From NCBI GenBank assembly GCA_020849035.1, contig JADLHC010000281.1, positions 1 through 47,607 on the forward strand: DNA of 47,607 nucleotides, given 5' to 3'. The notes below the pieces were generated by a model. The model saw only the letters and a list, made by a program, of their open reading frames with translations, had not been told where the DNA came from and ran no database searches. The position numbers and the translations under genes are program-made. Numbering within the stretch: the first letter of the stretch is position 1; every line of letters begins with the position of its first letter. The stretch comes from Planctomycetia bacterium. Lineage in GTDB: Bacteria > Planctomycetota > MHYJ01 > WSZJ01. This document shows, in pieces, positions 1 to 16,550 of the stretch.

Positions 1-1346
1 AGACCACAGCTTCGGGTACGCCTGCTCCCACGCCGCCGGTTCACCCCCACTCGCGTGGGGAAGACGCCGCGCAGGGGCATGGGGAGTGGACGGGCTTCGG
101 TTCACCCCCACTCGCGTGGGGAAGACTACACGGCCAGAGAACTCGCAGGCAACGAGGACGGTTCACCCCCACTCGCGTGGGGAAGACAGGGGGCGGATTC
201 ATCGGGGAACGCTTCTTCGCGGTTCACCCCCACTCGCGTGGGGAAGACGTCGCCACGGGTGCGAAGATCCCGCGCGATGTCGGTTCACCCCCACTCGCGT
301 GGGGAAGACATCGTCACCGGGGGCCTCAAGATCGGCCTCAGCGGTTCACCCCCACTCGCGTGGGGAAGACGCGGGCGAAGCGATCCCGGGGGGCTCCCTT
401 GGCGGTTCACCCCCACTCGCGTGGGGAAGACTAGGGGACGGTCGATCCGACCTCGACGATGAACGGTTCACCCCCACTCGCGTGGGGAAGACGGTGACGC
501 GGGCGATGCCGTGAGCAGGATCGACGGTTCACCCCCACTCGCGTGGGGAAGACGAGGACGTAGGGGAGATGGACTCGGCGTTGTTCGGTTCACCCCCACT
601 CGCGTGGGGAAGACCTCGCCGGCGACGTGCGCCGCGCACTCGGCGTCGGTTCACCCCCACTCGCGTGGGGAAGACTTCCATGGGTTACGCCTCATCGCCC
701 CAAAGGACGGTTCACCCCCACTCGCGTGGGGAAGACTGGAGCCGGGAGTCGCGGGCCATCTCGAATTTCGGTTCACCCCCACTCGCGTGGGGAAGACGAG
801 CGGGGCGTGGGGCTGGTCGAGCTCCTCGCCGGTTCACCCCCACTCGCGTGGGGAAGACTCCGGAGGACGTGGCGGCCGGCGCGCTTGAGTCGGTTCACCC
901 CCACTCGCGTGGGGAAGACGGCGCGGCCGCGGCGGGAGCGGGGGAGGTTCACGGTTCACCCCCACTCGCGTGGGGAAGACAGGGCAGCCTCGACCGCCGC
1001 CGGGTCCAGCGCCGGTTCACCCCCACTCGCGTGGGGAAGACCCGGTCAGCTGTTCGCGAAGTTCGCGCGCCTTCGGTTCACCCCCACTCGCGTGGGGAAG
1101 ACGTGGCGAATCGCCTCCTCGTCGCGCAGAACTACGGTTCACCCCCACTCGCGTGGGGAAGACCGCGCCAGCTCCTGCGCCCATCTGTTCTTTTTCGGTT
1201 CACCCCCACTCGCGTGGGGAAGACAAAGCCTCGTGAATTCCATGAACCCCTCCCTACGGTTCACCCCCACTCGCGTGGGGAAGACTTCGACGGCCTCTGG
1301 ACCGGGGACCCGCTCGACGGTTCACCCCCACTCGCGTGGGGAAGAC
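1..1346 (-). CRISPR. Type I-E CRISPR array, 22 complete repeats, left end outside window
   Basis: Twenty-two apparently identical 29-bp repeats start at 37 and recur every 61 bp up to 1318-1346; bases 1-4 are the end of one more repeat. The 32-nt spacers are all the same length. The base just before each GGTTCACC is always C, so the repeat is 29 bp, not 28. Read on the minus strand, the repeat begins GTCTTCCCC and ends GTGAACCG. It has a CCCCAC/GTGGGG stem with a 4-nt loop, the standard I-E form cut by Cas6e to leave an 8-nt GUGAACCG handle. The leader and cas genes lie at higher coordinates, so the newest spacer is the one next to 1318. The absence of repeat decay and the uniform spacing suggest an active or recently active array. 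ORFs read through the array are artefacts of the repeat. Confidence 0.98.
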
Positions 1347-1429
1347 TCTAGCCATTGATTATTTCCAGGAATCCAGCGCAACCCGTTGGGTCGCGATGCC
1401 CATACTACCGAACATGGACCTGACGTGCC
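1347..1429 (-). promoter_or_regulatory. CRISPR leader
   Basis: This 83-bp stretch lies between the cas2 stop codon and the first repeat and is the only place for the leader. It is noticeably richer in A and T near the array, ending GGAAATAATCAATGGCTAGA directly before the repeat on the minus strand. By family knowledge it should hold the array promoter or integration signals for Cas1-Cas2. I could not identify a convincing -35/-10 pair, and the array may also be read through from the cas operon. Confidence 0.7.
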
Positions 1430-1771
1430 TCATGGCGCTTCGGGCTCTCCCCCCTCGGCCTCAGCCTCCTGGGGATCCTCGCTCCCCCCAGCCTTCTTCA
1501 CGACGCGTACCAGCGTGAGCCCGTCCAGATCCACGAAGCTCCGCTGCGCGCAGTTATGAGCCCGGATCCGATACCCCTGGGGGCTCGGGTAGCTCCAGAT
1601 CTGGACCACGCTCGCCTTCGGTCCCGCCTTGCTCTTCGCCATCTGCCACAGGGCGTCCCGGATCCGGGCGGTCGGGTTGCCGAGGAACACTCCCGCCTCC
1701 GGTTCCAGAAGCCAGCGAGACAGCGCGCCCTTCGCGCTCGCCCGGGCGTTCTTCAAGATCATCACGAGCAT
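1430..1771 (-). CDS. cas2: CRISPR-associated endonuclease/adaptor Cas2e
   Basis: This 113-residue protein is the dimeric partner of Cas1 in spacer acquisition. The N-terminus MLVMILKNA, followed by RWLLEPEAGVFLGN, matches the Cas2e family pattern (ferredoxin-like fold, GVFxGN segment). A later QIWSYPSPQGYRIRAH stretch matches the family's WS...QGF.IRTH strand. I chose the ATG at 1771 because the family begins M-[LM]-V and GAGGTG lies just upstream; ATG 1762 is an alternative. The C-terminal tail from about residue 90 is Lys/Glu/Ala/Gly-rich and not conserved. The gene starts inside the cas1 reading frame and is the last cas gene before the leader. Confidence 0.93.
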   Translation of the reverse strand: MLVMILKNARASAKGALSRWLLEPEAGVFLGNPTARIRDALWQMAKSKAGPKASVVQIWSYPSPQGYRIRAHNCAQRSFVDLDGLTLVRVVKKAGGSEDPQEAEAEGGEPEAP

Positions 1772-2582
1772 CCAGCACCTCGGCGATGTCGGGAAGGATG
1801 CGTTCGATGAGCTTCGTCTGGTGGAAGACGTCGCGGCAGGAGAGGCGGACGCGGCGCTCGACGTCCTCGCCCGAGGCAGCCACGGTCTCGAACGCGACGG
1901 GGATTGTGGTGTCTGTCTTGTAGAGATCGGCAATGTCGTAGACAAAACTGAGCATCTTGCCGACGTGCACGAACCCGATCGCCGCCGAGTAGCCGGCAGA
2001 CAGGATCGCCGAGTGGCACAAGCCGTAAAGGCAGGCGTTCGCCGACGACAGCGCTCGATTCAGCGGGTCCGCGGAGTTCCAATTGTCCTGGTCGTAGTCG
2101 CGCCCCTGCCACACGACGCCGTGCCGTTCGGCCAGTTGCTTGTACGCGGCACGAACGCGCGCGCCCTCCATGCCGCGGATCGCCTCGATCGGCGTCGTGA
2201 CCGGGAGGATCGCGGGGAAACGCTTCTGGTACATGCGACGCACCACCGCGCGACGCGCCGCGGGGTTGGCGTAAAGTTCGGCTTGTCGCAGCAGCCGGTG
2301 CGAACTGAAGGTCCCTCCCGTTGAGTGCGCGTACAGCCGCACCCCCTGCTCTCCCGTCCAGCACACGAGACAGTTGTTGTCCGCGAGCGCCTTCATCGCG
2401 CCGTGCGTGATCTTCGTGCCCGGTCCCATCATCAGCAGCGCGAGCTGGTCGATGGGGATCTTGGTCTGCCCCTCCTTGTCCCAGAACGCGAGGCTCGTCG
2501 CCTCAACTTCGAGCGAGCCGTGTTCAAGGTACACGTGGCTCCACCGATCGTCGAAGCGGGGGAGCGTCTGCAAGTCGCGCAT
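1554..2582 (-). CDS. cas1: CRISPR integrase Cas1 (type I-E)
   Basis: Cas1 is the metal-dependent integrase that inserts new spacers at the leader end together with Cas2. From the ATG at 2582 the frame encodes 342 residues. Catalytic residues align well with the I-E family: E139 (GMEGARVR), H206 (IGFVHVGK), D216 and D219 (VYDIADLYK). The start is set by CGGAGG 7 nt upstream and by the N-terminus MRDLQTLPRF; the frame stays open further upstream but that part is not Cas1-like. From about residue 271 the frame continues 218 nt into cas2 with a Gly/Pro/Glu/Asp-rich tail of about 70 residues that does not look like Cas1. The tail may be real and disordered, or may reflect an indel. Confidence 0.95.
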   Translation of the reverse strand: MRDLQTLPRFDDRWSHVYLEHGSLEVEATSLAFWDKEGQTKIPIDQLALLMMGPGTKITHGAMKALADNNCLVCWTGEQGVRLYAHSTGGTFSSHRLLRQAELYANPAARRAVVRRMYQKRFPAILPVTTPIEAIRGMEGARVRAAYKQLAERHGVVWQGRDYDQDNWNSADPLNRALSSANACLYGLCHSAILSAGYSAAIGFVHVGKMLSFVYDIADLYKTDTTIPVAFETVAASGEDVERRVRLSCRDVFHQTKLIERILPDIAEVLDARDDLEERPGEREGRAVSLASGTGGGSVPRQPDRPDPGRPVADGEEQGGTEGERGPDLELPEPPGVSDPGS

Positions 2583-2836: not shown

Positions 2837-3202
2837 CTACGCTCCGACTGTCGCCGGCACCTTCTTCGCCGCCTGCGTCATCTCCCCGCGCAACTTCCGG
2901 ATCCGCTGGCCCAACGGACTCTCCTTGCCCACCGCGCTGACCATCCCGTCCGCCGCGTTGCTCGCCGCCCGGTACACCTTGTCGAGCGCAGCGACCGCAG
3001 CCTCGGTCGCCTTCACCAACTCGGCCTTCTTCCCCTCCTGGAACGCGTCCGCCGTCACATAGGTCGCGTGCGCGTCGGAGATCGCCTTCGTCTTCGCCGT
3101 CACGTCGAACCCGCCCGCCTTCAGCTCGGCAGCGTGACTCTTCAGAAGCTCCGCCACTGTCGTGCAGAAACTCGCCCTCTGTGCGTAGGTCAGTGCGGCC
3201 AT
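2837..3202 (-). CDS. Unknown 121-residue helical protein encoded inside the cas operon
   Basis: I cannot assign this protein to a named family. It starts at an ATG (3202) with AGGGAGG at good distance, so it is a well-supported gene. The product is Ala/Lys/Glu-rich with no Cys pair, no obvious catalytic motif and no signal peptide. It reads as almost entirely alpha-helical: an N-terminal helix after MAALTYAQRASF, an AGGFDVTAK turn near residue 35, a long central helix, and a basic C-terminal helix (RIRKLRGEMTQAAKK). From memory, small helical proteins of this general pattern recur in environmental genomes without a function. It lies 71 bp after cas6e and 254 bp before cas1 on the same strand. 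It may be an accessory of the HNH-Cascade, an adaptation helper, or a passenger. Confidence 0.8.
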   Translation of the reverse strand: MAALTYAQRASFCTTVAELLKSHAAELKAGGFDVTAKTKAISDAHATYVTADAFQEGKKAELVKATEAAVAALDKVYRAASNAADGMVSAVGKESPLGQRIRKLRGEMTQAAKKVPATVGA

Positions 3203-3273: not shown

Positions 3274-3999
3274 TCACTCGCGAGCCAGGGACAGCAGGCC
3301 GAAGCCCAGACCTTTCCCGGCCCCGATGCCTCTCGACACGGCATCCCACAGCTTGGCCGCGTCCGTGACTTCCAGTCGGCCCTCGAACAGCGCGGAGCGG
3401 AAAACAAGTTCCTGCGCGCCCTTCCAGGCGCGCTTCATCCCTTCGTCGGCAACCTCGAATTGCAGGAGCCTGAAGCCAGACTCCCCGGCCTTTCGCTCCA
3501 TCCAGCTGCGGAGGTCGTCCGTTGAAATTCCCACGCGGAGCTTTCGCCCGTCGGGCATGGTCTTCTTGCACGTCGGATTGGCGCGGAGACGAAAGCGGAA
3601 CGAGCTGCCTGCTTCGCAGGTCGCCGCCAGAGGCTGTACCTGGGGCAAGGCCGCGAGCAGCACGAGGTTGTTCTGGAAGGCGTACTCCCAGTCCGGTCTG
3701 CGGCCGGACTGCACGACGATGACGGGACTGCCTCCGAGTCGAACGTCAATCCGGAAGAGGAAGCCCTGGCCGGAGTCGCGCTCGACGTGAACGTCCTGTT
3801 CGCGCCCGCCATCGCCGGCGCCGAACCCCTCCGGGGAGTACGGTGCGACGAATTGAGGGTCATCCGCCTTTCTGACCGGCGTCGGAAATGCCATGCAAAG
3901 TCGCTGGTGAACGTGGTAAGGATTTCGGAGCCAATGCCGTCCCGGCCGGGGCCGATCCGGGTTCCCGCCGACGTTCACGAGCAGGGTGGAGAGGAACAT
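3274..3999 (-). CDS. cas6e: crRNA-processing endoribonuclease Cas6e
   Basis: Cas6e cleaves pre-crRNA 3' of the repeat hairpin and stays bound to the crRNA in Cascade. The 241-residue protein has the I-E Cas6 signatures. NPYHVHQRLCMAFP near residues 26-39 contains the likely catalytic His31 (the VHQ position equivalent to E. coli His20). FRFRLRANPT lies in the middle, and the C-terminal glycine-rich loop GIGAGKGLGFG sits near residues 225-235. Two bases separate the cas5 stop from its ATG, so the genes are probably translationally coupled. The repeat hairpin in the array fits its expected substrate. Confidence 0.95.
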   Translation of the reverse strand: MFLSTLLVNVGGNPDRPRPGRHWLRNPYHVHQRLCMAFPTPVRKADDPQFVAPYSPEGFGAGDGGREQDVHVERDSGQGFLFRIDVRLGGSPVIVVQSGRRPDWEYAFQNNLVLLAALPQVQPLAATCEAGSSFRFRLRANPTCKKTMPDGRKLRVGISTDDLRSWMERKAGESGFRLLQFEVADEGMKRAWKGAQELVFRSALFEGRLEVTDAAKLWDAVSRGIGAGKGLGFGLLSLARE

Positions 4000-4001
4000 G
4001 C

Positions 4002-5084
4002 CTACTCCACCTCCCCGGGCGCAAGCCTGCGCCGGCGCGACTCGAGGGATCGGAAGGACACAATCTCGTCGCGCTTCTGCATGATCGACTCGCGCCAGCG
4101 CGGTTCGACGGGATCGATGCGGTCGAGACCCATTCCGAGGCCGTATTCGAGCATGGTCACCGCGTCGTGGCAGAGGCGGCAGAGAGCCCGAAGATCTTCA
4201 AGACCCTCCGAGCCCCCGGCGTTCCGATACGTGACATGCTGCACCGTCGTCGCCGGCGACTTGCAGAACGTGCACAGCCCGTGGTCGTGCTGCAGTCGCG
4301 CGGCGCGGGCCTTCCTGTATGCCGCATCTCGGTAATCCGCGCGGGGTCTTGAGGCCGCTGGCATCCTCTCCAGTCGAGACGGTCCTTCGGCGATCGGAGC
4401 CTCCGACCGCAGGACGAACCTTGGATGGTGCACCGGCGGATCGAACGAGATCGGAGCGTCGAACCAGACTTCCGCGTCCCCGGGCGCAGCGTGGCCGGCG
4501 GCGCCGCGCCACTCGGTGAGCACGGTGACGCTCCGTGGCGGCTTCTCTGCAACCCCTGGTCGCCCGGCCCACGGGTGGCTCGCCAATGCGGCGTCAGGAG
4601 CATCGAAAGTCCCCTCGCCGGCAAGCACCGGCACTGCGGGCAGGCAACTTTTTCTCCCAAGGTAAACCGCCCAGCGCGGCCGCTGCAGCGCCGCCGTCAC
4701 GCGGGAGACGAGGCCTTCCTCTCCGAGAAGAACAGCCAGGAAACTCGCATCGCTCAGGTACTCTCGCCTGGTCACCAGCGTGCCGGCCGCGCCGGTCTTG
4801 CGATCCCCGTTGGCGCACAGCAGACCCTTGCCGGCTCCAACCGTCTGGTAGTCCCACCATCTGCGTCCTGGCCGGTCAGCGCGAACAGCAAGTCGCAAAG
4901 TGTTCAGTTCGCCCAGGACTTCACGAGCCGCGGCGCGCGACAGGCCCATCGCACTGCACACGATGCCCAGAAGCCCGGACTTCGTCGGCGCCTCCATCGT
5001 CCTCCTCATGTTGAACCGGGAGGGGTCGCCCCAGGACTGAAGAGGTCCCTCCAGCCGGAGGAAGACACAGTTGGGAGTTGGCAT
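4002..5084 (-). CDS. cas5: Cas5e fused to a C-terminal HNH nuclease (Cas5-HNH)
   Basis: Cas5e binds the crRNA 5' handle in Cascade; here it is extended by a nuclease domain. With the ATG at 5084 (GGAAGTAGG upstream, 5 bp after the cas7 stop) the protein has 360 residues, against about 225-250 for ordinary Cas5e. Residues 1 to about 235 show Cas5e features: VFLRLEGPLQSWG, TKSGLLGIVCSAMG, and WDYQTVGAGKG. Residues about 265-312 form an HNH module: CTFC at 271-274, QHVTYR with His283 as likely general base, EDLRALCRLCH with Cys302, Cys305 and His306. The metal-ligand position before His283, usually Asp or His, is Gln282. A basic C-terminal tail follows. With cas3 absent, this domain is the likely interference nuclease; such Cas5-HNH I-E systems are known from metagenomic mining. 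Confidence 0.93.
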   Translation of the reverse strand: MPTPNCVFLRLEGPLQSWGDPSRFNMRRTMEAPTKSGLLGIVCSAMGLSRAAAREVLGELNTLRLAVRADRPGRRWWDYQTVGAGKGLLCANGDRKTGAAGTLVTRREYLSDASFLAVLLGEEGLVSRVTAALQRPRWAVYLGRKSCLPAVPVLAGEGTFDAPDAALASHPWAGRPGVAEKPPRSVTVLTEWRGAAGHAAPGDAEVWFDAPISFDPPVHHPRFVLRSEAPIAEGPSRLERMPAASRPRADYRDAAYRKARAARLQHDHGLCTFCKSPATTVQHVTYRNAGGSEGLEDLRALCRLCHDAVTMLEYGLGMGLDRIDPVEPRWRESIMQKRDEIVSFRSLESRRRRLAPGEVE

Positions 5085-5089
5085 GAGAC

Positions 5090-6268
5090 CTACTTCCGCC
5101 CCGATGCGGAGGCGTGATCCGCCAGCGTCGCGGTGATTTTCTTTACGAACTCGGCGAAGGCGCCGAATTCGCACTCCTTTTCCACCACCGCCACTTCTCG
5201 CGCGGACTTCTCGTTGCGGGGCGTGCGCATGAGGGGGAACCTGCCTTCGGGCGAGAACCAGAACCGGCTCGATCGGATGCCGTATCCGTTTCCGATGTCA
5301 TACGCGTACTGGCCCAAGCGTGCGATGCTCTCGCCGACGATCCCGCGCGGCGCGTTCAATGCAACCGGCTCCGCGAACGCGTTCGCGTAGCTGATCGGCA
5401 TCGCCGCCTCCAGCTTGATTTCGCCGAGGATTCCGTCAGGGGGATTGAAGGCGGCAAAGCTCTTCTGTTTGCCCGAGGGCATCGTCAGCGCTGCTGCTCG
5501 CAGGAACTTCTCCACCGTCAGCCTGGCGAGCGCAACGTCGCCATTCAGGTTTGAGACGAGTTGCTCCCAATCGATGGAGTAGTGCTTGTAGAAGCAGGCG
5601 GACGCGAACATTCCTTCGTTCACGTGCCCGGCTCCCGTGCCCTTGGCTTTGTCGTCGACGGCGGTGAAGTAATCAACTTCGTTCACGACCTCGTGCGTCG
5701 AGAACGCGTGAGCGGCGGAGAGTGCGGCCTCGACATGGAAGTTGATCCCCTTGAACAGACCGTCCTTGTCCAGTTCGGTCATTCGTCCGCAGAGCGCCAC
5801 GTCCGGAACTGCAGGCTTGACCGCTAACCGCTTCGCCAACGTTTCGGCAAGGGCTCTGGCGGACGTCTTGGCCTTGAATCCCTCGCGAACGTCGGCCGCC
5901 ATGGCGCTGATGGTCGATCGAGGCACAAAGAGCAGGATGTTCGTGGCATTTGCGTCTTCGGCGACGGCGTCGATGCTCACGCCCCCTGCAACGAACGCTT
6001 TCGCAAGCCAGTCGAGCTGTTCGGCTGTCGGCGCGCCGGCGAACGCCTCGTCTGCCAGCAGCGTCACCATCCTGCGTGTCCGAACACCGCCGTCCTTCTC
6101 GAGCGCGGGCAGGAACTCCGGACTTGTACGGATGGAACGCTTGAGGCACTGGCTCGACACTCGTGCCCGCATGACGCCGCCGAACAGGCAGGACTTCGGT
6201 GCCCCCAGATCGTCCCGGTTCAAGTTTGCGGGGCTGTGATTCTGGATCAGATGGAACTCGATCAACAT
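5090..6268 (-). CDS. cas7: Cascade backbone subunit Cas7e (Cse4/CasC)
   Basis: Cas7e polymerises along the crRNA spacer, about six copies in ordinary I-E Cascade. The 392-residue product starts MLIEFHLIQNHSPANLNRDD, followed by GAPKSCLFGGVMRARVSSQC, the hallmark N-terminal region of the family. FHVEAALSAAHAFSTHEV and GTGAGHVNEGMFASACFY match other conserved Cas7e stretches. I use the ATG at 6268 (AAGGGAGA upstream), which overlaps the cse2 stop by 7 bp; the frame remains open 51 bp further upstream, but that part is not family-like. Confidence 0.96.
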   Translation of the reverse strand: MLIEFHLIQNHSPANLNRDDLGAPKSCLFGGVMRARVSSQCLKRSIRTSPEFLPALEKDGGVRTRRMVTLLADEAFAGAPTAEQLDWLAKAFVAGGVSIDAVAEDANATNILLFVPRSTISAMAADVREGFKAKTSARALAETLAKRLAVKPAVPDVALCGRMTELDKDGLFKGINFHVEAALSAAHAFSTHEVVNEVDYFTAVDDKAKGTGAGHVNEGMFASACFYKHYSIDWEQLVSNLNGDVALARLTVEKFLRAAALTMPSGKQKSFAAFNPPDGILGEIKLEAAMPISYANAFAEPVALNAPRGIVGESIARLGQYAYDIGNGYGIRSSRFWFSPEGRFPLMRTPRNEKSAREVAVVEKECEFGAFAEFVKKITATLADHASASGRK

Positions 6269-6813
6269 GGAAGTCTCCCTTTGCTCTTGGTGACAGCGTT
6301 CAAGTACTGCTCGGCCCACACCTCCCTCACATCCTTGCGCTTGCGATGCTCTACACCCCGATCCCAGATGGACAGGTCATCGAGCAACCCGACCCAGTCC
6401 AGGCCCGGACGATTCCGCGCCTTGGCCGCCCGTGCCGCGGAGTTGATCGCCCAGCGGAGCGTGTCCTCCAGTTTCGCGAGAGGCAGCGTCAGCAGCATTT
6501 CGAAGCGCGCGCGGAATCGCTGCCAGTCACCGTCTCCTCTCGGCTCGGCAACTCCCACCATCGCTGCAAGCTGGGCCTCCTCGCCCTCCACCTGCGGTAG
6601 CGGAAAAGAACCGAACAACTTCGCGACGAGCCAGCTCGGCTCACGACGAGGTGTCGCGGGGGACTTCTCGCGCAGCGGCCACCAGATGCCCGTGAAGAGG
6701 TCAAAACCTCCCTGCGACGCATCCAGACCAGCGCCCGCAAGGCGGCGGAGGCGCGATCGCTCGCCGGCAGCGAGTGACTGCAACGCGACAACAAATCCTC
6801 GGGTTGTGCTCAC
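6262..6813 (-). CDS. cse2: Cascade small subunit Cse2/Cas11e
   Basis: Cse2 forms a dimer along the Cascade belly and stabilises the displaced strand of the R-loop. The 183-residue, mostly helical protein has the family's GxxRxxLRR-like segment (AAGERSRLRRLAGAG), the central RFRARFEMLLTLPLAKLEDTL segment, and the C-terminal DWVGLLDDLSIWD segment. It starts with GTG in a GTGA overlap with the cas8e stop, which implies translational coupling. Length is normal for the family. Confidence 0.92.
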   Translation of the reverse strand: MSTTRGFVVALQSLAAGERSRLRRLAGAGLDASQGGFDLFTGIWWPLREKSPATPRREPSWLVAKLFGSFPLPQVEGEEAQLAAMVGVAEPRGDGDWQRFRARFEMLLTLPLAKLEDTLRWAINSAARAAKARNRPGLDWVGLLDDLSIWDRGVEHRKRKDVREVWAEQYLNAVTKSKGRLPC

Positions 6814-8399
6814 TTGGAGTCGCCCCCCCGCCTCTCTCGACTCTTCAAATGGGATCCGGCAGAAGGAGATGGAACCGAGCCGAACCCCTTCTGCAGGGAT
6901 GAGGCGAACTCCCGTCGAGTCCGAATTCGACTCACCTGATGATTCAGCGCTGAACCACGGGTCGAGGCCGCGATGACCGTGTCCAGGATGTCCCGTAGCG
7001 GTCCAGCGAGGCGCTCCGCCAACACTTGCTCCACGACAGGGCCAGACGGGCTGCCCTCACCAGCTCGGCTGAGTTCGTTCTTCAGTTCGGCCTCTGCCCC
7101 TGGAAGCAGCACCTCTGCTGCAGCCAGACGATCCTGGTGCGACCGACCAGCGATCTTCGAACGCCTCCGGCCTGGAAGATCCTCTGCCGCGCGACGAAGC
7201 ACGTTCGCGAAGGAATGAATCATGAACTCCGCGATCGGAAGGCTCGCCGGTTCACCCAAGACGCCCGCGAGCAGGGCCTTTGATATCTCGATGCAGGCGG
7301 AATCCAAGTAGAGTTGACCATTCTTGGTCGTCGCAGGACCGGCAAATAGGATGCGAGCAACCTGCGGATTCCGAGCTTTTGGTGAGCGCGCCAGCACCTC
7401 GAGAACCCTCCTCCACACACGGACATGCGAGCGCGTCGGCTCCTGAGGATTGTTGAACCCCAGAGTCGATAGTTGAGCCGCTTCCCGCAACCCCGCGGCT
7501 GTGCCCCTGTTGAGTTCGTCGCGTTCCGAGGTGTCGAGTTGGCTCGCCAGCTTCTTCTTCACGTTAACGACCAGAAGGTGTGGGTCGTCCTTCCAGAATG
7601 ACTTTGCACCTTCGACGGCTTCGTCGCGTTCCCATCCGCCCGTATTGGCGATCTGCCTGACCAGGCGGGTCTTGTTCCCGCAATACGCACAGATCTCGGG
7701 CTCGCCACAGTCACCTAGCCACACGCTGCGTGAGCGCCAAGCCAACACCGTAACGGCATCCAGCGTCTTGGGCCGAACATCGGTGAGCCAGGGAGCAATC
7801 CCGGACAGACTTCCCGGAAGCGGCCAATTCAGCTCCAGGGTGCGAAGCAAGCTGGTGCCCAGAGGCACCGCGTAGGCTGGTGCAGGTCCGTTGACGCCTG
7901 ATGTGTACCCGCTGCCCGCGTAGAAGGCGTAGGAGCAATGCCGGATAATTCCGAGCGCGCAGCAAGCAGGACACAATCCGTACTCGCGATCGCGCACGTG
8001 ACGAAAGTGTGCGACCTTAGTCGCGGTCGGGAATTCGTGGAGCAGGTCGCCCACAGGACGCTTGACGTTCGCCGCTTGCGCCGGATCCTGGTAGAACCTA
8101 GGCGCTTCGCCGAGCAGGTTGAATCGCCGTTCATGCTCCAGCACCGGCCGCAGCCAGGCTTCGGGAACGCCATCTGCGGAATCAAGCGAGGCCAGTTCCT
8201 CGACGGACAACACAGGTTTTGCCCACTGCAAGAGCGCGATGAGGAATCGAAGGACAGCGACCTGGTCGAGTGGGCTGGCGGTCGCTAGTTGCCGGATCGA
8301 TGCTGACTGAGTCAGCGTCGCAATCAATCCGAGGCGTTCAACTCTTCCATCCGCGAACAGCACGGGAATCCACGGTGCTCGGAGCAGGTTGAAGCTCAT
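6810..8399 (-). CDS. cas8e: Cascade large subunit Cas8e (Cse1/CasA)
   Basis: Cas8e recognises the PAM and, in ordinary I-E systems, recruits Cas3 after R-loop formation. The 529-residue protein begins MSFNLLRAPWIPVLFADGR, the classic Cse1 opening, and contains a long segment around CPACCALG...GSGYTSGVNGPAP typical of the family, plus a CxxC-bearing region (EICAYCGNKTRL) in the middle. It is the first gene of the operon; the next gene upstream is moaB, with no cas3 between. Whether its Cas3-docking surface is retained cannot be judged by eye and would be informative given the HNH domain on Cas5. Confidence 0.95.
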   Translation of the reverse strand: MSFNLLRAPWIPVLFADGRVERLGLIATLTQSASIRQLATASPLDQVAVLRFLIALLQWAKPVLSVEELASLDSADGVPEAWLRPVLEHERRFNLLGEAPRFYQDPAQAANVKRPVGDLLHEFPTATKVAHFRHVRDREYGLCPACCALGIIRHCSYAFYAGSGYTSGVNGPAPAYAVPLGTSLLRTLELNWPLPGSLSGIAPWLTDVRPKTLDAVTVLAWRSRSVWLGDCGEPEICAYCGNKTRLVRQIANTGGWERDEAVEGAKSFWKDDPHLLVVNVKKKLASQLDTSERDELNRGTAAGLREAAQLSTLGFNNPQEPTRSHVRVWRRVLEVLARSPKARNPQVARILFAGPATTKNGQLYLDSACIEISKALLAGVLGEPASLPIAEFMIHSFANVLRRAAEDLPGRRRSKIAGRSHQDRLAAAEVLLPGAEAELKNELSRAGEGSPSGPVVEQVLAERLAGPLRDILDTVIAASTRGSALNHQVSRIRTRREFASSLQKGFGSVPSPSAGSHLKSRERRGGDSK

Positions 8400-9271: not shown

Positions 9272-13430
<4,159 letters not shown>

Positions 13431-13468
13431 GCGGGGAGCAAGACTATCACAGGAGCGGCGCCGGGGGG

Positions 13469-14707
13469 CTACGCGTCGATCGTCAGCGGCATCACCAGGT
13501 AGACGTAGTCACGCCCCGCGCGGATCACGCCCGCCGTCAGCTTGTCGCGCAGGTCCAGCGTGATCGGGCTCGGCGTCTCCGCGGGCTCGGCGGCCTTCGG
13601 CTTCTCCTCCTTCGCGACCTTCTTCCCCTTTCCTTTCTCGGGCTTCTCCGCGCTCGCCTCGACCTTCGTGTCCGCCTCGGAGTCCATCACGTCCGGGCGA
13701 CCGCCGGCGACGATCTTGAGGAAGTCGATGAAGAAGTCCGGGTTGAACGAAATGTCGAAGTCCGGCCCCGCGTACTTCACGGCGACCTCGTGGCTCGCCT
13801 CGCCCGCCTCCCCCGTGATCCTCCTCGCGAACAGCTTCAGGCGGTCCTTCGAGAGCTGGAACTTCACGGCGCGCTGCTTGTCGTCCGTCATGCTCGTCGC
13901 CAGCCTCAGGCGGTACTCGAGCTCGGCAGGGCTGACCTGCACCTTCTTGTCCGGGTCGCCCGGAATCACGTCCTCGTAGTTCGGGAACGACCCCTCAACC
14001 AGCCTCGCGAACAGCGTCCCCGCGCTCGTCTTCGCCTTGATCTGCGTCTCCTCGAACTCGAACGCGATCTCCTCGTCGCCCTCCGAGACGATCTTCTCGA
14101 CGAGGTGAAGCGCCTTCGGAGGCACGATCACCTTCACCTCGTCCTTCGGCCCGCCCGACAGGCGCTTCTTCACGTACGCCATCCGCTTCCCGTCCGTCCC
14201 CACCATCCGCGCCTCGTTCTGGCGCAGCACGAACAGGACGCCCGTCAGCGCGTAGCGGCTCGGCTCGCTCGAGACGGCGAACGCGGTCTTGCGCACCATG
14301 TCGCGGAAGTCGTCCACGGCGATCCGCACGGCCTTCTTCTCGTCGAACTCCGGGAACTGCGGGAAATCCTGGGGATCCGCGCCCGTGAGCTTGAACGACC
14401 CGCCCTCGATCTCGATCGCGCACAGCTTGCCGTCGACGTCGAATCTCACCTCGTCGTCCCGGATGTCCCGAACGATCTGGTTGAGCTTCTGCGCCGGCAG
14501 GACCGCCGACCCGCTCTTCTGGATCCCCACATCGCGCACGGCGAAACGCAGCCCCATCTCGAGGTCGGTCGCCGTCAGGAGCAGTTCGCCGTCCGCGGCG
14601 GAGACCTTGATGTTCTGGAGGATCGGCACGCTCGTCCGCGCGGGAACGGCGGAGGCGACGACGCCGACGGCCTGGGCGAGATCCTGTCTCTTGCAGCGGA
14701 AGCGCAT
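13469..14707 (-). CDS. dnaN: DNA polymerase III beta sliding clamp
   Basis: DnaN is the ring-shaped processivity clamp of the replicase. The 412-residue protein begins MRFRCKRQDLAQAVGVVASAVPARTS and contains ILQNIKVSA, SEPSRYALTGVLF and EGSFPNYEDVIP, all clamp hallmarks. The C-terminus YVYLVMPLTI is typical. It is about 40 residues longer than usual because of a Lys/Glu/Ala/Pro-rich insert around residues 335-380 in domain III, just before the last strands. The ATG at 14707 has GGAG 8 nt upstream. It follows dnaA on the same strand after a 277-bp spacer. Confidence 0.97.
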   Translation of the reverse strand: MRFRCKRQDLAQAVGVVASAVPARTSVPILQNIKVSAADGELLLTATDLEMGLRFAVRDVGIQKSGSAVLPAQKLNQIVRDIRDDEVRFDVDGKLCAIEIEGGSFKLTGADPQDFPQFPEFDEKKAVRIAVDDFRDMVRKTAFAVSSEPSRYALTGVLFVLRQNEARMVGTDGKRMAYVKKRLSGGPKDEVKVIVPPKALHLVEKIVSEGDEEIAFEFEETQIKAKTSAGTLFARLVEGSFPNYEDVIPGDPDKKVQVSPAELEYRLRLATSMTDDKQRAVKFQLSKDRLKLFARRITGEAGEASHEVAVKYAGPDFDISFNPDFFIDFLKIVAGGRPDVMDSEADTKVEASAEKPEKGKGKKVAKEEKPKAAEPAETPSPITLDLRDKLTAGVIRAGRDYVYLVMPLTIDA

Positions 14708-14984
14708 GTCCGGGCTCCGTTCTTCTGATGGTTCTTTCTTATGTAAAACCCTTCACCGTCGTCTTAGGGGCCCGGAATTTGTGGAAAACCTTTCCCGAAC
14801 CTCTCCCAAGTCCTGGCGCGGCAGGGACCTCCGTCCTCCCGTCCCCTACGGCTCCCTCCGGCAACCCCGGGGAAACTCCCGGGAACCAGGTCCGGCTTTC
14901 GTGGAACCCCGCGTTCCGCCCCGCAGTCTTCCACATTCTTTCAACGGCTCTCCGGCCCGATTCCCCGGCCGGCCGGGAAGTTCT
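14708..14984. other. dnaA-dnaN spacer, candidate oriC
   Basis: This 277-bp spacer contains a perfect DnaA box TTTTCCACA on the minus strand at 14780-14788 and a near match TCTTCCACA on the plus strand at 14927-14935. An AT-richer patch (about 14727-14755, TTCTTTCTTATGTAAAACCC) next to the perfect box is a plausible unwinding element in this otherwise GC-rich DNA. It also holds the dnaN promoter region. The number of clear boxes is small, so this is a candidate, not a demonstrated origin. Confidence 0.5.
14780..14788 (-). promoter_or_regulatory. DnaA box
   Basis: TTTTCCACA on the minus strand fits the TTWTNCACA consensus exactly and lies in the dnaA-dnaN spacer. Confidence 0.6.
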
Positions 14985-16355
14985 CTACAGCTTGCCTTTG
15001 CGGATTTCGTCGGCCAGCTGCTCCATGAACGCCCGGAAACCCGGGTCCGAATCTAGCAGGTCCTTCATGGTGTCGATCGCGTACGAAACCGTGGAGTGGT
15101 CGCGCCCGCCGAACGCGTTGCCGATGTCGGTCTGGGACGCGTTGGTCATCGTGCGCGCCAGGTAGATGCCGATCTGGCGCGCCTTCGAGAGCGACTTGGT
15201 GCGGCCCTTGGACTGCAGGTCCGCGGCCTTGACGCCGAGCTTGCGGCAGACGACGGCCTGGATCTCGGCGATCGAGACCGGGGCCGCGGCGACCTCGAGG
15301 GCGTCGCGCAGCGCCTCCCGGGCGACCTCGAGGTCGATCGGGCGGCTGAGCAGGGACGCATACGCCGCCACCTTCGTCACCGCGCCCTCGAGCTCGCGGA
15401 TGTTCGACTCGATGTTCTGCGCGATGAAGAAGTACACGTCCTCCGGGAACGGCGTCCCGCGCGCCTCGGCCTTCTTCTTGAGGATCGCGACGCGCGTCTC
15501 GAACGTCGGCGTGTCGATCCGCGCCACGAGCCCCATCGAGAACCGCGTCATCAGCCGGTCCTCGAGCGTCGGGATGTCCTTCGGCGGCGCGTCCGAGCAC
15601 AGGATGATCTGCTTCGAGGCGTTGTGCAGGGCGTTGAAGGTGTGGAAGAACTCCTCCTGGGAGCCTTCCTTGCCGGCGAGGAAGTGGATGTCGTCGATGA
15701 GGAGGACGTCGACACTGCGCATGCGCGCGCGGAACGCCTCGAGGTTCTTCATGTTCTGCACGGACGCGATGTAGTCGTTCACGAACCCCTCGCAGGACAG
15801 GTAGCAGATGTTGAGGTTCGGCTGGCGGGCGAGGATCGCGTGGCAGATGGCCTGGAGGAGGTGGGTCTTGCCGAGCCCGACGGACCCGTAGAGGAAGAGC
15901 GGGTTGTAGGCCTGGCCGGGGGCGGCAGCGACGGAGGTCGCGGCGGCGTGGGCGAGGCGGTTCGAGAGGCCGATGACGAAGTTCTCGAACGTGTACGACG
16001 GGTTCAGCACGAGGCCGTTCCCGGGCGGGACGGGCGGCAGGGCAAGCACCGGGACCGTGGAGGGCGGGGGCGTCGAGGCGGGCGCGAGCGGCGCCGCCTC
16101 CGCGTTCACCCGGATCGCCAGCTTGACCGGGCCCTCCGCCACCGTGGCCAGCACCTCCTCCAGCGCGCGGCGGTAGTTGCGCTCGTAATGGTCCGCCATG
16201 AACACGTTGCGGACCTGGAGTTCGCAGCTTGCCCCGTTGGGCAGCAGCGTGATCTTGGACGGGTCGAACCAGGCCCGGAACTCGTCCTCCGGCAGCCGCT
16301 GGGCGAGTTCCGCGAAGACGCGGTCCCGCAGGGCGGCACCATCAGAAGGAAGCAT
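14985..16355 (-). CDS. dnaA: Chromosomal replication initiator DnaA
   Basis: DnaA is the AAA+ initiator that binds DnaA boxes and opens oriC. With the ATG at 16355 (AAAGGA upstream) the protein has 456 residues. Domain I is at about 1-85 (LPEDEFRAWFDP), followed by a Pro/Ala linker. The AAA+ domain has Walker A GSVGLGKT at 157-164 and Walker B VDVLLIDDIHFLAG. The C-terminal DNA-binding helix-turn-helix carries the signature GGRDHSTVSYAI. The frame stays open 46 codons further upstream, but that stretch is not DnaA-like and contains promoter-like repeats. Confidence 0.98.
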   Translation of the reverse strand: MLPSDGAALRDRVFAELAQRLPEDEFRAWFDPSKITLLPNGASCELQVRNVFMADHYERNYRRALEEVLATVAEGPVKLAIRVNAEAAPLAPASTPPPSTVPVLALPPVPPGNGLVLNPSYTFENFVIGLSNRLAHAAATSVAAAPGQAYNPLFLYGSVGLGKTHLLQAICHAILARQPNLNICYLSCEGFVNDYIASVQNMKNLEAFRARMRSVDVLLIDDIHFLAGKEGSQEEFFHTFNALHNASKQIILCSDAPPKDIPTLEDRLMTRFSMGLVARIDTPTFETRVAILKKKAEARGTPFPEDVYFFIAQNIESNIRELEGAVTKVAAYASLLSRPIDLEVAREALRDALEVAAAPVSIAEIQAVVCRKLGVKAADLQSKGRTKSLSKARQIGIYLARTMTNASQTDIGNAFGGRDHSTVSYAIDTMKDLLDSDPGFRAFMEQLADEIRKGKL

Positions 16356-16550
16356 GGGGTCCTTTGAGGGGGATTGCGTGTGGGCGAGAGAAACTTCGAG
16401 ACCGTGCGCGACAGGTCGTGTTGTGTGCGTCGTGTTGTGCGCGGGGAGACTAGCAGCCGTGAGTTTGAGCGTCAATTTTGACGCAGCGCGCAAAGCGCGA
16501 CGGGCGAAAACGGTTACGGCGCGGCCGGGTTTTTCTTTTGTGCGGCCCGG
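16356..16550 (-). promoter_or_regulatory. dnaA upstream region with palindrome and tandem repeat
   Basis: This 195-bp spacer before dnaA holds an inverted repeat GCGTCAATTTTGACGC (16469-16484, 7-bp arms) that looks like an operator. It also holds two direct copies of GTCGTGTTGTG (16415-16425 and 16429-16439, 14-bp period). No consensus DnaA box was found here. The elements are well placed to control dnaA transcription, but no binding protein can be named. Confidence 0.45.

What the first reader, a model, noticed from the sequence alone, without database searches (positions are those of the whole stretch)
4002..8399. Type I-E Cascade whose Cas5 carries an HNH nuclease and which lacks cas3
Cas5e is extended by about 100 residues containing a CxxC...H...ED..CxxCH HNH module. 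No cas3 lies anywhere between the array and moaB, where it normally precedes cas8e. A complete Cascade set (cas8e, cse2, cas7, cas5, cas6), cas1, cas2 and a clean array are all present. The most economical reading is that the HNH domain replaces Cas3 and cuts DNA in the R-loop directly. Cas5-HNH I-E systems were reported from large-scale metagenomic mining in 2023 (recalled from memory), so the architecture is known but rare. This instance appears to lie in a different, very GC-rich chromosome beside the replication origin.
Basis: partly seen in the sequence, partly recalled or inferred. Interest (0 to 1): 0.93.

Follow-up and report, generated by a model that had tools for sequence, protein, structure and literature searches.

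The report
Cas5-HNH CRISPR system lacking Cas3
This is a bacterial immune system that recognises invading DNA with a small RNA and probably cuts it with a nuclease domain built into the recognition complex, instead of calling in the usual separate shredding enzyme; such systems were reported in 2023, and this is a further, well-preserved member in an unnamed bacterium.

Summary
Window 4002-5084(-) encodes a 360-aa Cas5e with a C-terminal HNH domain (Pfam HNH, over cut-off), in a cas8e-cse2-cas7-cas5-cas6-(orfX)-cas1-cas2 operon beside an array of at least 22 spacers. No cas3 lies in the window, and no Cas3 HD or C-terminal domain was found in the 5.42-Mb, 89.5%-complete assembly. It is a known kind: variant I-E2, reported in 2023, solved by cryo-EM in 2024, named in 2025. 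All five Cascade subunits have the HNH-bearing I-E Cascade (PDB 8yb6) as best PDB match; Cas5-HNH is about 53% identical, with HNH and zinc residues conserved. Eleven other HNH loci were compared (four phyla, one archaeal, plus the window's own phylum). Ten HNH loci with upstream sequence lack cas3; nine comparable canonical loci all have it. The Cas7s form one clade, the Cas1s do not (AU p = 0.0004): apparently one effector lineage that moves between hosts and changes adaptation partners. Lower GC3 and absence from four congeners suggest the window's copy was acquired horizontally. Cleavage itself is inferred. New member of a known kind.

The parts
4002..5084 (-). cas5e-HNH: 360-aa Cas5e fused to a C-terminal HNH nuclease
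   Evidence: Pfam Cas_Cas5d 6e-40 and HNH 2e-5; PADLOC Cas5e 7.5e-49; best PDB match 8yb6_A, E 1.8e-104
4158..4274 (-). HNH core, residues 271-309: C271, C274, H283, D297, C302, C305, H306
   Evidence: All invariant in A1, which includes the solved homologue; Pfam HNH stretch
5090..6268 (-). cas7e (Cse4/CasC), Cascade backbone, 392 aa
   Evidence: Pfam Cas_CT1975 4.7e-87; best PDB 8yb6_D 7.7e-91
6262..6813 (-). cse2 (cas11e), small subunit, 183 aa
   Evidence: Pfam CRISPR_Cse2 1.4e-10; only PDB match 8yb6_K, 1.3e-27
6810..8399 (-). cas8e (cse1), large subunit, 529 aa
   Evidence: Pfam CRISPR_Cse1 2.9e-35; best PDB 8yb6_J 1.3e-34
3274..3999 (-). cas6e, crRNA-processing endoribonuclease, 241 aa
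   Evidence: Pfam CRISPR_assoc 3.8e-36; best PDB 8yb6_B 1.6e-40
2837..3202 (-). orfX: 121-aa ORF of unknown function between cas6 and cas1
   Evidence: GGGAGGG upstream of ATG; no Pfam, PHROG or PADLOC family above noise (the PADLOC scan used the longer ORF holding it); found in none of the other 58 genomes searched
1554..2582 (-). cas1e integrase; its 3' end overlaps cas2 out of frame
   Evidence: PADLOC Cas1e 1.4e-115
1430..1771 (-). cas2e, 113 aa
   Evidence: Pfam Cas_Cas2CT1978 1.1e-21
1347..1429 (-). probable leader between cas2 and the array
   Evidence: position only
1..1346 (-). CRISPR array: 22 complete 29-nt repeats GTCTTCCCCACGCGAGTGGGGGTGAACCG, 22 spacers of 32 nt, cut off by the contig start

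Best explanation
It is an intact I-E2 (Cas5-HNH, HNH-Cascade) CRISPR-Cas system. Cas6e cuts the array transcript into crRNAs with 32-nt guides. Cas8e, Cse2, Cas7 and Cas5-HNH assemble on the crRNA. Cascade finds a target beside a PAM and opens an R-loop. The HNH domain at the end of Cas5, lying inside the complex between Cas6 and Cse2, gains access to the DNA on complete R-loop formation and cuts both strands near the PAM-distal end, giving a precise double-strand break in place of Cas3's processive shredding. Cas1-Cas2 adds new spacers. Shown here: gene content, homology of all five subunits to the solved complex, conservation of the HNH and zinc residues, absence of cas3 from the assembly, and a coherent array. 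Inferred from the characterised homologue: assembly, PAM recognition, cleavage and its geometry.
For: All five Cascade subunits have chains of 8yb6 as best PDB match, ahead of canonical I-E structures where these match at all. H283, D297, H306 and C271/C274/C302/C305 are invariant across 8 sequences, including the solved one. Ten of ten HNH loci with upstream sequence lack cas3, and nine of nine comparable canonical loci have it. The own genome has no Cas3_HD or Cas3_C match. Spacers of 32 nt match the 32-nt guides of the characterised system. PAM-dependent cutting, cut sites and loss of activity on HNH mutation were measured on the Cloacimonetes homologue (PMC10910872); the structural mechanism is as described in PMC11822464.
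Against: No biochemical test of this copy. The assembly is 89.5% complete in 349 contigs and the array breaks at the contig edge, so a distant cas3 cannot be fully excluded. No protospacers were found, so recent immunity and the PAM could not be shown. The AlphaFold model of the HNH part is of low confidence.
Confidence: 0.93

Rival explanations
1. Canonical I-E system whose cas3 lies elsewhere in the genome; the HNH is an accessory.
For: Assembly incomplete and broken at the array. One relative, the Synergistaceae genome of L008, carries a complete cas3-bearing I-E system about 10 kb from its HNH Cascade.
Against: No Cas3_HD or Cas3_C in the assembly. The cas3_core hits are sub-threshold; the three best, read here, look like YprA-type, Mfd and Ski2-like helicases. 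No HNH locus with upstream sequence carries an adjacent cas3. The homologue cuts without Cas3 (PMC10910872).
Confidence: 0.04
2. A binding-only or decaying Cascade: the HNH is inactive and the complex silences targets without cutting them.
For: No matching protospacers found; sporadic presence in the genus.
Against: HNH and zinc residues kept, all seven cas frames open, all 22 complete repeats identical; no sign of decay.
Confidence: 0.03

Closest known systems
I-E2 (Cas5-HNH, HNH-Cascade) of Candidatus Cloacimonetes (PMC10910872, PMC11822464, PMC12669027); PDB 8yb6, 8yha, 8zlu, 8zm3, 8zol, 8zp7, 8zp9, 9jxs
   Same: Same five-subunit Cascade, C-terminal HNH on Cas5, no cas3, 32-nt spacers, same HNH and zinc residues
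   Different: About 53% identical Cas5; a different host (unnamed bacterium, window 69% GC); an extra 121-aa orfX between cas6 and cas1
I-E2 loci in Phycisphaerae (L006, L009), Synergistaceae (L007, L008), Thermoplasmata (L010), Chthonomonas (L011) and five genomes of the window's phylum (L042-L046)
   Same: Operon order and HNH architecture; very similar repeat core where an array was read
   Different: cas1 of different ancestry; degenerate or truncated cas1 in L008 and L009; orfX not found in L006-L011 or L042-L046
Canonical type I-E (E. coli, T. fusca structures; L047-L052, L078, L080)
   Same: cas8e-cse2-cas7-cas5-cas6-cas1-cas2 and repeat type
   Different: cas3 present, no HNH on Cas5; Cas7s fall outside the HNH clade
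I-F4 (Cas8-HNH), Selenomonas
   Same: HNH replaces Cas3 in a Cascade
   Different: HNH on Cas8f in a I-F complex; independent acquisition (PMC10910872, PMC12669027)

Membership tests
Type I-E2 (Cas5-HNH) CRISPR-Cas | Complete I-E effector set: cas8e, cse2, cas7e, cas5e, cas6e | tested here: met
   Pfam matches over cut-offs and PADLOC matches; PDB matches
Type I-E2 (Cas5-HNH) CRISPR-Cas | HNH nuclease fused to Cas5 with intact HNH residues | tested here: met
   Pfam HNH over cut-off; H283, D297, H306 and 4 Cys invariant with the solved homologue
Type I-E2 (Cas5-HNH) CRISPR-Cas | Typically no cas3 | tested here: met
   None in window or in the 89.5%-complete assembly
Type I-E2 (Cas5-HNH) CRISPR-Cas | Effector groups phylogenetically with other Cas5-HNH systems | tested here: met
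   Cas7s of 11 HNH loci on one side of a branch, support 97/95, 100% of 200 bootstrap trees
Type I-E2 (Cas5-HNH) CRISPR-Cas | CRISPR array with I-E-like repeats and 32-nt spacers | tested here: met
   29-nt repeats, 32-nt spacers
Type I-E2 (Cas5-HNH) CRISPR-Cas | RNA-guided, PAM-dependent double-strand cleavage by HNH | not testable with these tools
   Needs biochemistry; shown for the homologue in PMC10910872
Canonical type I-E | cas3 helicase-nuclease | tested here: not met

The most novel reading that the evidence does not exclude
I-E2 effector modules are one lineage that travels between phyla, including into archaea, as a self-contained unit of recognition plus cutting, and re-pairs repeatedly with whatever I-E Cas1-Cas2 is at hand, because fusing the nuclease to Cascade frees it from Cas3 and from Cas3-dependent primed adaptation.
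Probability: 0.45. Interest if true: 0.5.

Novelty: new member of a known kind. Interest (0 to 1): 0.34.

Why it matters
It adds a well-preserved, GC-rich I-E2 system to a small set of characterised HNH-Cascades, which are of interest as precise multi-subunit DNA cutters. The comparison here gives a clean reciprocal pattern (HNH or cas3, never both in one operon) and suggests that the effector has a single origin while its adaptation genes do not. That makes it testable whether loss of Cas3 changes spacer acquisition, since primed adaptation in ordinary I-E needs Cas3.

Tried and rejected
PAM inference failed. The 22 spacers concatenated had no match in phages or plasmids and only chance-level matches (E 0.0005 or worse) in 59 relatives, apart from the array itself. 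Seven spacers searched as exact 22-mers in IMG/VR gave nothing. The Cas5-HNH protein has no relative found in viral contigs, and on plasmids no match covers 80% of it; the rows listed are plain Cas5e. An AlphaFold2 model from 7 sequences had mean pLDDT 60 and was poor over the HNH domain; it was not used for a fold search. No Rfam match and no tRNA in the window.

Full report
CHECK OF THE OBSERVATION. The minus strand from 8399 down to 1430 encodes cas8e, cse2, cas7, cas5, cas6, an unassigned 121-aa ORF (orfX), cas1 and cas2, followed by a CRISPR array from 1346 to the contig start. Cas5 starts at 5084 and is 360 aa long. Its first 195 or so residues match Cas5, and residues 271-309 match Pfam HNH (24.9 bits, cut-off 21.4). 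The array has 22 identical complete 29-nt repeats and 32-nt spacers. Bases 1-4 of the contig are the end of a further repeat, so the array continues beyond the assembly.

CAS3. Four cas3 proteins taken from canonical I-E loci find nothing significant in the window. In the window's own assembly (5.42 Mb, 349 contigs, 89.5% complete) Cas3_HD and Cas3_C have no match. The cas3_core model has five sub-threshold matches. The three best look like a YprA-type helicase, Mfd and a Ski2-like helicase by my reading of their sequences; the two weakest were not examined further.

WHAT IT IS. Against the PDB, the best match of all five Cascade subunits is one complex, 8yb6 and its sister entries. For Cse2 it is the only match. 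These are type I-E Cascade entries whose CasD (Cas5) chain is 388 aa and carries the HNH domain. That they are the Candidatus Cloacimonetes HNH-Cascade is my inference from that architecture and from the literature describing it (PMC11822464), since the PDB table does not name the organism. Alignment of Cas5-HNH shows H283, D297, H306 and cysteines 271, 274, 302 and 305 invariant in eight sequences. In three further loci (L043-L045) the position of D297, which is that of the N in HNH, reads E, while both histidines and all cysteines are kept. The 2025 classification names this variant I-E2 (PMC12669027).

RELATIVES. A scan of GTDB contigs found six Cas5-HNH loci, in Phycisphaerae (2), Synergistaceae (2), a Thermoplasmata archaeon and Chthonomonas, all in the same operon context as far as the contigs reach. 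Of 392 genomes drawn from the window's phylum, six have full-length Cas5-HNH, the window's own included, while others carry plain Cas5e. In loci with upstream sequence, cas3 was found in 0 of 10 HNH loci and 9 of 9 canonical loci; L011, L042 and L079 are cut off upstream and were not counted. In whole genomes, Cas3_HD has no match in eight of the eleven other HNH genomes. The Synergistaceae genome of L008 has a true cas3, in a separate complete I-E system about 10 kb away; the genomes of L007 and L042 have weaker matches over the cut-off, of which one, on the contig of L077, shows only partial similarity to cas3.

EVOLUTION. In a Cas7 tree the 11 HNH loci are one side of a branch (support 97/95, all 200 bootstrap trees). 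In the Cas1 tree of the same loci they are mixed with canonical ones, and a single HNH clade is rejected (AU p = 0.0004). Both trees have long-branched rows, the root is not inferred, and the canonical sample is small (9-10 loci), so details of placement are unsure. The reading is one origin of the HNH effector with exchange of adaptation genes. The window's cas genes have GC3 0.68-0.85 against 0.90-0.97 in the neighbouring moaB, gyrB, dciA, dnaN, dnaA and nifS-like genes, and four congeners lack Cas5-HNH. In three of these the dciA-gyrB-moaB block is conserved without cas genes beside it in the stretch read. Horizontal acquisition next to gyrB-moaB is the natural reading. The claim of a position by the replication origin is supported by dnaA, dnaN, dciA and gyrB at 9272-16493; an origin itself was not looked for.

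MECHANISM. Taken from the homologue: Cascade cleaves dsDNA precisely in a PAM-dependent way, target strand 3-4 bp and non-target strand 8 bp beyond the PAM-distal end, with collateral ssDNA cleavage, and activity is lost on mutation of the HNH (PMC10910872). HNH sits between Cas6 and Cas11, and full R-loop formation moves it and widens the substrate channel (PMC11822464). None of these steps was tested for this copy.

NOVELTY. A new member of a known kind.

Noticed in passing
window 2837-3202 (-): orfX, 121 aa, between cas6 and cas1, with a good ribosome-binding site and host-like GC3 (0.89); no family match, and found in none of the other 58 relatives searched. Possible accessory or unrelated insertion.
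   Followed up: partly
L046:3774-4967 (-) (genome G166): A divergent Cas5-HNH (35% identical) that keeps the two HNH histidines and the aspartate position but lacks three of the four zinc cysteines (T, S and A at window positions 274, 302 and 305): a possible zinc-free HNH variant, with no cas3 beside it.
   Followed up: partly
L075 and L076 (Synergistaceae, genome G394): An HNH Cascade operon with only remnants of cas1 lies about 10 kb from a complete canonical I-E system with cas3, cas1 and cas2; the two may share adaptation genes.
   Followed up: partly
window 9272-11920 (-): GyrB carries an N-terminal DciA-like extension of about 75 residues (Pfam DciA 1.7e-9), next to a separate dciA gene at 11917-12255; the extension is present in all five genomes of the genus searched and aligns in G007 (partly in G005), but not in most of the class.
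   Followed up: partly
window 1554-1771: cas1 and cas2 overlap by about 218 nt in different frames; a similar overlap is seen in L010.
   Followed up: no
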